NCBI RefSeq assembly: GCF_000014285.2
Contig: NC_008343.2
Location: 1,390,501 to 1,454,500, forward strand
Reading direction: 5' to 3'
DNA from: Granulibacter bethesdensis CGDNIH1
GTDB taxonomy: Bacteria > Pseudomonadota > Alphaproteobacteria > Acetobacterales > Acetobacteraceae
DNA: 64,000 bases
The position numbers and the translations under genes were made by a program. The notes under the pieces were generated by a model. That model was not told the origin of the DNA. It did not search any database and was given only the letters and a program-made list of their open reading frames with translations. Of the stretch, positions 35,267 to 37,158 are shown piece after piece; the stretch's first letter is position 1, and every line of letters starts with the position of its first letter.

Positions 35267-36589
35267 TCAGACAGACTCCCGAATACGCGCCAGAGCATCC
35301 TCGACCGTCAATTCCACCCGCTCACCGGTGCGGCGACGCTTCAGTTCGACACGCCCGGCAGCCGCTCCACGCGGGCCGATCACCACCTGCCACGGATGCC
35401 CCATCAGATCGGCATCGGCGAATTTCACCCCCGCACGTTCGTCACGGTCATCATACAGGGCATGGCGCACACCGATCCGTCGATACACATCTTCGGCCAT
35501 GGCATCGCAGGCCGCATCACCGTTTTTCAGGTTCAGCACCGCAGCCCTGAACGGCGCGATGCTGTCCGGCCAGATGATGCCTGCCTCATCATGGCTCGCC
35601 TCGATCACTGCCGCGACCATGCGACTGACACCAATCCCGTAGCTGCCCATTTCAGGATGCAGCTTCTGCCCGTCACGACCTGCAACCGTCATATTCAAGG
35701 CTTTGGAGTATTTAGTGCCGAAATAGAAAATATGCCCGACCTCAATCCCCCGCCCGGTACGACGACGCGCTTCCGGCAAGGCCTCATAGGCTGCTGTATC
35801 GTGCTTCTCGTCAGTAGCAGCGTAATGGCCTGTGATCGTCTGGAAAAAACGCTCCAGATCCGCATCGGAATCGACATTGAAAGACGCACCGGACCAGTCG
35901 ATTTCCTCGAACGCTGCGTCGTAAAAGACCTCGCTCTCCCCGGTGGGAGCAAGAATAATGAATTCATGACTCAGATCGCCACCGATCGGGCCTGTATCGG
36001 CCAGCATCGGAATCGCCTTGACGCCCAGACGCTGGAATGTGCGCATATAAGACAGCATGATACGACGATAGCTGCGCACCGCTCCCGCATAATCGAGATC
36101 AAAGCTGTAGCCGTCCTTCATCAGGAACTCACGGCCACGCATCACACCGAAGCGGGGGCGAATTTCGTCGCGGAACTTCCACTGAATCTGGTAGGCCATC
36201 TGCGGCAGTTCACGATAGCTCTTGACCGAATGGCGGTAGATATCGGTGATCACTTCCTCATTGGTCGGCCCGTAGAGCAGATCACGCTCATGCCGGTCCT
36301 TCAGCCGCAGCATTTCGGGGCCGTACGCATCGTAACGACCGCTTTCCCGCCAAAGATCAGCCGACTGGATGGTCGGCATCAGCACTTCCTGAGCGCCGAT
36401 CCCGGCCTGCTCATCGCGCACGATATTGGCAATGGCGTTCAGCACGCGCAGCCCGGCCGGCAGCCAGGCATAAATACCGGCGGCTTCCTGCTGGATCAGA
36501 CCAGCACGTAACATCAACCGGTGCGAGGCAATCTGGGCCTCGGCGGGTGTTTCCTTGAGGGTGGGAATCAGGGCACGGGAAAGGCGCAT
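35267..36589 (-). CDS. proS: Prolyl-tRNA synthetase (short alphaproteobacterial form)
   Basis: Class II synthetase that charges tRNA-Pro. The 440-residue protein begins [32 protein letters not shown], with motif 2 around [26 protein letters not shown] and motif 3 around [15 protein letters not shown]. The length and the direct run from motif 2 to motif 3 show that the editing insertion domain of the E. coli type is missing or minimal, as in alphaproteobacteria. I use the ATG at 36589; a GTG at 36604 is an alternative, and the frame is open upstream to 36766 through a terminator hairpin, so earlier starts are unlikely. The strong hairpin 79 bases upstream raises the question of how it is transcribed. 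Confidence 0.95.
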
Positions 36590-36667
36590 GGGTTCATCCG
36601 TCACAAAAAGCCTGCGGACCCTACAATTCCCTCGTTCCTGCCGCCAGTCTCCGCAGAGGCCGCACAT

Positions 36668-36702
36668 AAAAAAAAGGCCCGCGCGCATCAGCGCAGCGGG
36701 CC
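36668..36702 (-). terminator. Very strong intrinsic terminator between the DUF1467 gene and proS
   Basis: GGCCCGC (36676-36682) pairs with GCGGGCC (36696-36702), extended by GCGC/GCGC around an ATCA loop with one bulged base, and followed on the minus strand by eight T (36675-36668). It ends the transcript from upstream or a small RNA, and lies 79 bases before the proS start. Confidence 0.9.
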
Positions 36703-36792
36703 AAAGTTTAGGGAGGAAACGCCAGTCACACGGCAGAAAGAGGAACACCCTCTCTCTGGGGCCCATTATCGGTGCACCGCGCAGGGATGGCC
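36668..36792 (-). ncRNA. Candidate structured small RNA or proS leader with an anti-Shine-Dalgarno loop
   Basis: Upstream of the terminator the minus-strand transcript folds a 10-bp hairpin: CAGAGAGAGG (36758-36749) with CCTCTTTCTG (36743-36734). Its one non-canonical position is a G-U wobble only in minus-strand RNA. Next comes GTTTCCTCCCTAAAC (36720-36706), a weak 4-bp stem that presents CCTCCCT, an anti-Shine-Dalgarno sequence, in its loop. A third imperfect pairing (GCCAT near 36791 with ATGGGC near 36766) lies at the 5' side. The 5' end and promoter are not visible; an AT-rich stretch at 36797-36885 precedes it. It resembles in layout the CCUCCUCCC-loop small RNAs of alphaproteobacteria, but this is inference. 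Confidence 0.5.
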
Positions 36793-36885
36793 AGCAATTT
36801 TCTCTCTTTTTTGACTGAAAAATAAGCGTTTAAAACAGAAAAAGCCTATTTTTTAACTATCTGAATATGAATAGAAGTCATTTGA

Positions 36886-37158
36886 TTAATCTTTGGGCAG
36901 CGCAAGCCATCCACTTCGGAAACTGAGGTAGTCGCTGTTAATGACAGTCATGAAAATGCCCCACACCACGATGGAGATCAGGGTCGTCAGCAAAGCTTTT
37001 TTCAGAATTTGCGGATTTTCGGGTGTACCGCGCCACCCGCTGACATCATCAGCCTCCTGTCTGGTGCGGGTACCCAGCGGCAGAATGGCAAAAAGCAGGG
37101 TCCACCAGATCAACGCATACAGCACGATCGCCGTGAACCAGCCGATATGACGAAACAT
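36886..37158 (-). CDS. DUF1467 family membrane protein
   Basis: A 90-residue protein with two membrane helices (WFTAIVLYALIWWTLLFAILPLG at residues about 7-29 and ALLTTLISIVVWGIFMTVI at about 55-73) separated by the conserved TRTRQEADDVSGWRGTPENP loop, a clear DUF1467 pattern. The function is unknown. It is a routine neighbour of proS and the rnj gene in alphaproteobacteria. It lies 20 bases after rnj and is followed by an AT-rich gap and the structured region before proS. Confidence 0.85.
   Translation of the reverse strand: MFRHIGWFTAIVLYALIWWTLLFAILPLGTRTRQEADDVSGWRGTPENPQILKKALLTTLISIVVWGIFMTVINSDYLSFRSGWLALPKD

What the first reader, a model, noticed from the sequence alone, without database searches (positions are those of the whole stretch)
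36668..36792. Possible small RNA with an anti-Shine-Dalgarno loop between the DUF1467 gene and proS
On the minus strand a 10-bp hairpin (36758-36734), whose only irregular pair is a G-U wobble on that strand alone, is followed by GTTTCCTCCCTAAAC with CCTCCCT in the loop, and then by a very strong terminator with eight T. This matches the general design of trans-acting small RNAs, and alphaproteobacteria have known families with CCUCC-type loops. No known family is claimed. The upstream 90 bases are AT-rich, as promoter regions often are.
Basis: partly seen in the sequence, partly recalled or inferred. Interest (0 to 1): 0.65.

Follow-up and report, generated by a model that had tools for sequence, protein, structure and literature searches.

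The report
Second αR8 (MmgR-type) small RNA gene
This looks like a real small regulatory RNA gene of a known alphaproteobacterial family (αR8, also called MmgR or suhB RNA), sitting at a second, conserved site next to proS, and it probably blocks translation of nutrient-uptake genes by pairing with their ribosome-binding sites.

Summary
The genome has two copies over the cut-off. One is at the usual αR8 site beside N-formylglutamate amidohydrolase. The window copy is at a second site, RNase J - DUF1467 - sRNA - proS, which recurs across Acetobacteraceae: 89 of 150 sampled genomes match a model of this copy at 62 bits or more. The CCUCCC stretch is nearly invariant but predicted unpaired, not in a loop. 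Promoter-like boxes suggest a start at the hairpin. The RNA persists where proS or DUF1467 is away, so it is unlikely to be a proS leader. Across relatives, genes whose start region matches the seed over 11 bases are often solute-binding proteins (13 of 31, against 2 of 29 controls), which suggests a nutrient-uptake regulon. No transcript or target was measured. New member of a known kind; this second-site lineage was not found in the papers I could search, but two key papers were not held.

The parts
36668..36758 (-). Predicted sRNA transcript (91 nt), αR8/RF00519 family
   Evidence: cmscan RF00519 49.5 bits at 36661-36741; subfamily model R1 108.5 bits over 36668-36758, a sequence that was among the 10 the model was built from; 5' end inferred from promoter spacing, 3' end from the terminator
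36765..36793 (-). Promoter-like boxes: -35 TGGCCA (36793-36788), 17-base spacer, -10 GATAAT (36770-36765)
   Evidence: 2 such sites in 1501 bases against 0.9 expected, so weak alone; boxes conserved in position upstream of 90 homologues, where TGGAC or TTGTC and AATCAT or CACCAT are frequent
36734..36758 (-). 5' hairpin, 10 bp with one G-U pair, 5-base loop
   Evidence: hairpin of at least 6 bp in 88 of 90 homologues folded one by one; 8 of 9 modelled pairs show changes on both sides
36721..36734 (-). Second small stem-loop GCC-GUGUGACU-GGC with a nearly invariant loop
   Evidence: each loop base identical in 86-90 of 90 homologues; its three pairs vary on one side only, so covariation neither supports nor refutes it
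36706..36720 (-). Seed GUUUCCUCCCUAAAC, anti-Shine-Dalgarno
   Evidence: each base identical in 83-90 of 90; CCUCCCU predicted unpaired
36668..36702 (-). Intrinsic terminator: hairpin 36702-36676 and eight U
   Evidence: 10 of 11 modelled pairs show changes on both sides
35267..36589 (-). proS, prolyl-tRNA synthetase (downstream neighbour)
   Evidence: Pfam PF00587, PF03129; homologues align from the residue encoded at 36589
36886..37158 (-). DUF1467 gene (upstream neighbour)
   Evidence: Pfam PF07330
37179..38837 (-). RNase J gene (further upstream)
   Evidence: Pfam PF22505 and others

Best explanation
It is a stand-alone, Hfq-type trans-acting small RNA of the αR8 (MmgR/suhB, RF00519) family, transcribed leftwards from its own promoter as about 91 nt (36758 to 36668). 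The 5' hairpin and the terminator hairpin protect the ends, and the U tail is the likely Hfq site. The single-stranded GUUUCCUCCCUAAAC between them pairs with the Shine-Dalgarno region of target mRNAs and blocks ribosome loading. Likely targets, as a class, are mRNAs of periplasmic solute-binding proteins and catabolic enzymes. Shown here by computation: family match, structure, conservation, covariation, conserved promoter-like boxes, synteny. Inferred: transcription, Hfq binding, repression and targets.
For: RF00519 over its gathering score. Two copies in the genome share the same 15-base seed. 90 homologues with 95.5% of cells paired and 18 of 23 pairs changed on both sides, against 33-59% paired when slid (the alignment was fitted to the model). 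Separate folds: hairpin in 88 of 90. Seed nearly invariant. Conserved promoter-like boxes. Synteny with RNase J, DUF1467 and proS. Persistence when proS or DUF1467 is away. hfq present, PF17209 E = 4.6e-32. In Caulobacter the family member SisA represses CCNA_03574 by pairing of the conserved 10-mer upstream of the start codon, with compensatory mutations (PMC12559287, passages read). Seed-matched start sites lie before solute-binding proteins in 13 of 31 cases against 2 of 29 controls, Fisher p = 0.002.
Against: No RNA-seq, northern or Hfq data for this organism. In its own genome the seed complement with up to 3 mismatches is no commoner than the reversed control (54 against 61 sites, the 54 including the two sRNA genes), and only one site is an 11-base match before an ATG, a T2SS protein G gene, which congener G002 lacks by that pattern; so no target of this RNA in this organism is established. 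The paralogues share the seed, so the target enrichment cannot be assigned to the window copy. The control for the enrichment differs in spacing and in requiring ATGA. Four copies (L226, L232, L235, L236) keep the seed but show no U-run in the stretch printed (read by eye), so the design is not kept everywhere.
Confidence: 0.87

Rival explanations
1. A cis-acting leader or attenuator of proS: the hairpins sense something and the terminator controls read-through into proS.
For: The element is upstream of proS on the same strand in 81 of 90 cases, mostly within a few hundred bases, and ends in a strong terminator.
Against: In 7 of 90 proS is more than 1.1 kb away; five of these seven were inspected (L138, L210, L214, L224, L076) and all five have an acyltransferase-like gene in between, named by reading the translation. 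In 9 of 90 no proS was found downstream (some of these stretches are cut by contig ends); the five inspected (L147, L222, L209, L192, L075) have other genes there. Family members occur at unrelated sites. The longest conserved stretch is an anti-SD seed.
Confidence: 0.04
2. A 3'-UTR-derived RNA processed from the DUF1467 mRNA rather than a gene with its own promoter.
For: DUF1467 lies upstream on the same strand in 79 of 90, 127 bases away in the window; the 5' hairpin could mark a processing end.
Against: In 7 of 90 the RNA lies between RNase J and proS with no DUF1467 hit, and promoter-like boxes are conserved at a fixed distance from its 5' end.
Confidence: 0.08
3. Only a transcription terminator of the DUF1467 operon plus a chance CCTCCC.
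For: A terminator is expected here.
Against: Near-invariant 30-base core and a covarying 5' hairpin in 90 homologues; RF00519 match.
Confidence: 0.01

Closest known systems
MmgR of Sinorhizobium meliloti (RF00519, αR8)
   Same: Same Rfam family, core and terminator; 77-nt Hfq-dependent RNA (PMC8401924, passages read).
   Different: Here 91 nt predicted, with a longer covarying 5' hairpin and a GUGUGAC loop. PMC12559287 says MmgR is the sole αR8 RNA of S. meliloti, while PMC2873474 speaks of four suhB paralogues there; this genome has two copies over the cut-off.
SisA-D of Caulobacter crescentus (αR8)
   Same: Multi-copy family with a shared anti-SD 10-mer; SisA acts with Hfq and represses TonB receptors, transporters and metabolic genes (PMC12559287, passages read).
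   Different: SisA lies beside N-formylglutamate amidohydrolase; the window copy lies at RNase J-DUF1467-proS. A CrfA-like sponge was not sought as such; no other perfect complement of the 15-base seed exists in this genome.
Betaproteobacteria toxic small RNAs (RF02278)
   Same: CCUCC stretch before a strong terminator.
   Different: 23.3 bits against a gathering score of 50: not a member.
Rhodobacter CCUCCUCCC-motif sRNAs (recalled, no call)
   Same: Anti-SD-like CCUCC motifs in an alphaproteobacterium (recalled).
   Different: No comparison was made here.

Membership tests
RF00519 suhB/MmgR (αR8) | Covariance-model score at or above the curated gathering score | tested here: met
   49.5 bits against 41, full model 1-77
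RF00519 suhB/MmgR (αR8) | Conserved single-stranded CUCCCUA-type core with anti-SD character | tested here: met
   GUUUCCUCCCUAAAC at 36720-36706; CCUCCCU predicted unpaired
RF00519 suhB/MmgR (αR8) | Small stem before the core and a GC-rich terminator with U-run after it | tested here: met
RF00519 suhB/MmgR (αR8) | Usual position beside N-formylglutamate amidohydrolase (typical, not defining) | tested here: not met
   This copy is beside DUF1467 and proS; the paralogue at C1:1040518 is beside PF05013 FGase
RF00519 suhB/MmgR (αR8) | Expressed as a short transcript that binds Hfq | not testable with these tools
   An hfq gene is present; no expression data
RF00519 suhB/MmgR (αR8) | Represses targets by pairing at the Shine-Dalgarno region | tested here: inconclusive
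   Seed-matched start sites favour solute-binding proteins across relatives, but not visibly in the own genome, and no target was tested
RF02278 Betaproteobacteria toxic sRNA | Score at or above gathering score | tested here: not met
   23.3 against 50 bits
RF00512 Leu_leader | Score at or above gathering score | tested here: not met
   18.2 against 50 bits

The most novel reading that the evidence does not exclude
αR8 RNAs form at least two old, separately inherited lineages fixed at two sites: one beside FGase, one between DUF1467 and proS. The second, in Acetobacteraceae, has gained a nearly invariant GUGUGAC loop beside the anti-SD seed that acts as a second pairing or protein-binding module, giving it a target set of its own within a nutrient-uptake regulon. 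A group of mostly small-genome relatives (acetic acid bacteria by my guess) lost it together with DUF1467.
Probability: 0.35. Interest if true: 0.5.

Novelty: new member of a known kind. Interest (0 to 1): 0.33.

Why it matters
It turns an anonymous intergenic hairpin into a member of a family whose pairing mechanism was shown recently in Caulobacter (PMC12559287), and gives a testable regulon (solute-binding proteins) and a natural comparison: two paralogues with the same seed and different 5' parts in one small genome. The conserved second site gives a way to follow duplication and loss of a regulatory RNA by synteny.

Tried and rejected
proS leader, DUF1467 3'-UTR product and bare terminator were considered and are less likely (rivals). 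The first multiple alignment (A1, 23 rows) put the 5' arm out of register because loop lengths differ, so the model was built from the 10 rows with a 5-base loop (A2) and hairpins were checked by separate folds. Target search in the own genome with up to 3 mismatches gave nothing above the reversed control; 42 of those 54 sites, two of them the sRNA genes themselves, were looked at and gave no convincing set. A same-core control pattern gave only 5 sites, too few, so a looser control was used. A sponge like CrfA was looked for only as a perfect seed complement: none besides the two sRNA genes.

Literature: searches;'s 1,574 papers 15 were listed and none opened; 'Granulibacter bethesdensis' with sRNA gave 1 review, not opened; Acidiphilium with sRNA 3 papers, none opened; mmgR with proS 1 unrelated paper. 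Passages were read in PMC12559287, PMC8401924 and PMC2873474. The two key αR8 papers of Lagares and co-workers (2016, 2017) are not held, so whether they list this locus is unknown. Rfam's own full membership list was not seen either.

Rows dropped before counts: the 37 listed seed-site matches are 36 distinct sites (one site is listed twice); all 36 were fetched (30, 6). Four are antisense reads of sRNA genes (L413, L428, L431, L432) and L412 has no reading frame, leaving 31. Of the control, 50 loci were fetched out of a longer, cut list; 21 had frames under 100 aa, leaving 29. Without a Pfam hit: 4 of 31 and 4 of 29. Also dropping one of the orthologues L420/L421 and four control starts that I judged to lie inside genes (L485, L488, L497, L500) gives 13 of 26 against 2 of 21, p = 0.004.

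Full report
Observation. The CCUCCCU stretch itself is predicted unpaired; the GUUU/AAAC mini-stem has pair probabilities of about 0.2.

Family. A scan of the whole window against Rfam gives four tRNAs and one other match: RF00519 (suhB, 'Makes More Granules Regulator'), 36661-36741 minus, 49.5 bits against a gathering score of 41. Weak matches to RF02278 and RF00512 are far below their cut-offs. RF00519 is the αR8 family, whose studied members are MmgR of Sinorhizobium meliloti and SisA-D of Caulobacter (PMC12559287 and PMC8401924, passages read). A suhB RNA was first found opposite the suhB gene of Agrobacterium (PMC2873474, passages read).

Copies. The own genome (2,708,434 bases, one contig; by size it could be Granulibacter, which is recalled and untested) has two matches over the cut-off. 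One is at C1:1040518-1040592 beside N-formylglutamate amidohydrolase (PF05013), the site that PMC12559287 gives as usual. The other is the window copy. Both carry the same 15-base seed, and no other site in the genome matches its complement with fewer than two mismatches. Among 60 relatives, 37 have a match over the cut-off and 41 at E <= 0.01. PMC12559287 says that the family is in all Alphaproteobacteria except Rickettsiales; the 19 relatives without a match do not fit that simply, though several have small genomes and the search used stricter filters.

A second conserved site. Loci around the family's matches show that the window copy has positional counterparts: RNase J, DUF1467, sRNA, proS in the same order. 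A covariance model of this type (R1, 10 sequences including the window's) was searched in 150 Acetobacteraceae genomes: 121 match at E <= 0.001, and 90 matches in 89 genomes score 62 bits or more, by my count of the listing. Five matches score 51-56 bits: L227, L228, L229 and L231 have proS downstream and look like diverged copies of the same site, and L230 has the sequence of the other type, without FGase in the stretch fetched. Below 50 bits come mostly copies of the other type, with some decayed copies of this one among them (L232, L235, L236). In a class sample of 190 genomes, at least three of them of the own family, no match outside the family exceeds 50.5 bits. In a sample of 120 genomes of the order, 41 match at E <= 1e-8, all of the same family; every genome listed, matching or not, is of that family, so this adds no other family. 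These searches used stricter filters that can lose weak matches. An exact 23-base core is found in at least 117 stretches of DNA (the scan stopped at its limit; 80 were listed), with record titles such as Roseomonas, Acidiphilium, Acidocella, Belnapia and Elioraea; a Solirubrobacterales and two Asaia metagenome bins do not fit and may be mislabelled.

Synteny of the 90: proS downstream in 81, DUF1467 upstream in 79, RNase J upstream in 82, all three in 67. Some misses are contig ends. In 7 of 90 proS is more than 1.1 kb away; the five of these inspected all have an acyltransferase-like gene in between. In 9 of 90 no proS was found; the five of these inspected have other genes downstream, among them methyltransferase-like (L147), glucose-6-phosphate dehydrogenase-like (L222), accA-like (L192) and, on the other strand, DUF445-like (L209) genes. 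Names come from reading the translations, not from a search. So the RNA does not depend on proS. It also remains in 7 of 90 where RNase J and proS are found but DUF1467 is not.

Structure. On the model-fitted alignment of the 90 (A3), 95.5% of cells pair, 18 of 23 pairs show changes on both sides, and sliding the partners drops pairing to 33-59%. Because that alignment leans towards the structure, each 5' region was also folded alone: 88 of 90 give a hairpin of at least 6 bp (L215 was missed by the anchor pattern, and L223 folds a hairpin with a longer tail). From 36734 to 36705 each base is identical in 83-90 of 90, including the GUGUGACU loop (86-90). The three pairs of the small GCC/GGC stem vary on one side only, and the GUUU/AAAC mini-stem was not tested by covariation because its bases hardly vary.

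Promoter. A TGGCCA-17-GATAAT pair lies upstream (2 such sites against 0.9 expected in shuffles, so alone it is weak). Upstream of the 90 homologues, TGGAC or TTGTC and AATCAT or CACCAT recur at these positions (A at -11 in 69, T at -7 in 66, T at -41 in 74 of 90), while no column from -30 to -13 passes 43 of 90. The spacing suggests a start at the first bases of the hairpin.

History. Of the 29 family genomes without an R1 match, 18 were followed. All 18 have RNase J within the 1.5 kb upstream of proS, none shows DUF1467 there, and one (L238, genome G068) has a degenerate relic of 19.5 bits. Seven of the 18 were also in the RF00519 search: six had no match at E <= 0.01 and one (G032) a weak one of 27 bits. 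G068 has a copy of the other type elsewhere. Of 40 αR8 loci from genomes outside the family (39 taken from the upper part's list, some rows skipped, and L114), 22 have FGase nearby and 5 (L114, L167, L170, L176, L402) have DUF1467, RNase J or proS. These five have TGGCG before the seed and, by eye, a 5' hairpin; none of the 34 other loci whose seed was located has TGGCG there (one, L163, was not located). This suggests that the second site is older than the family.

Mechanism. In Caulobacter, SisA uses the family's 10-mer with anti-SD character to repress targets, shown by compensatory mutations for one target, and its target set is rich in TonB receptors and transporters (PMC12559287). In 40 relatives, AGGGAGGAAAC 1-9 bases before ATG is listed 37 times (36 distinct sites) and its reversed control never; any Shine-Dalgarno-like pattern would show such an excess. 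Of the 31 usable genes behind these sites, 13 are solute-binding proteins (TctC, DctP, SBP and Peripla_BP families), two of the 13 from outside the family (L439, L440). Of 29 control genes behind CTGGAGGA, 5-9 bases, ATGA, 2 are. Fisher p = 0.002. The seed sites pair more strongly with the sRNA by design (-22.0 against -12.6 kcal/mol). In the 18 genomes above the pattern is listed 5 times in about 50 Mb, one of them an sRNA gene of G068, against 28 distinct non-self sites in about 100 Mb of 22 family genomes not among those 18: p = 0.013 (0.009 counted one site twice; sizes summed by me from rounded values). The 18 may simply have fewer such genes, so this is only suggestive. In the own genome the one such site is before a T2SS protein G gene; congener G001 has it, G002 does not, and the looser search of the own genome shows no excess. 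Targets of the window RNA are therefore open.

Verdict. Very probably a real αR8 sRNA gene at a second conserved locus: a new member of a known kind. Expression, Hfq binding and targets are inferred.

Noticed in passing
window 35267-36766 (-): The longest proS reading frame starts at 36766 and runs through the sRNA; homologues align from 36589. Automatic annotation could choose the long form and hide the sRNA.
   Followed up: partly
own genome C1:1358517-1358594 (+), locus L003 1501-1578: A third, sub-threshold RF00519 match (25 bits) with a CCUUCCUC stretch and a GC-rich hairpin, between a uvrA-like gene and a sigma-54-type response-regulator-like gene (names by reading the translation); both congeners have a match of similar score.
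   Followed up: no
L086, L122, L123, L125 (match regions): Four sub-threshold RF00519 matches share the words TCTCCCAGACGTGAAGCCTCCCTG and a terminator-like end, possibly another CCUCCC small RNA family in Acetobacteraceae.
   Followed up: no
L226, L232, L235, L236: Copies, three of them with proS downstream in the stretch fetched, that keep the seed but show no U-run in the printed stretch: decaying genes or read-through versions.
   Followed up: no
G088 (places on C1 and C3): One genome has eight matches to model R1: one at 70 bits and seven at nearly equal scores of 43-46 bits, as if recently multiplied.
   Followed up: no
L265: A three-mismatch seed complement lies upstream of a PII-like (GlnB) gene (named by reading the translation) in the own genome, of interest because mmgR is nitrogen-regulated in S. 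meliloti; it may be chance.
   Followed up: no
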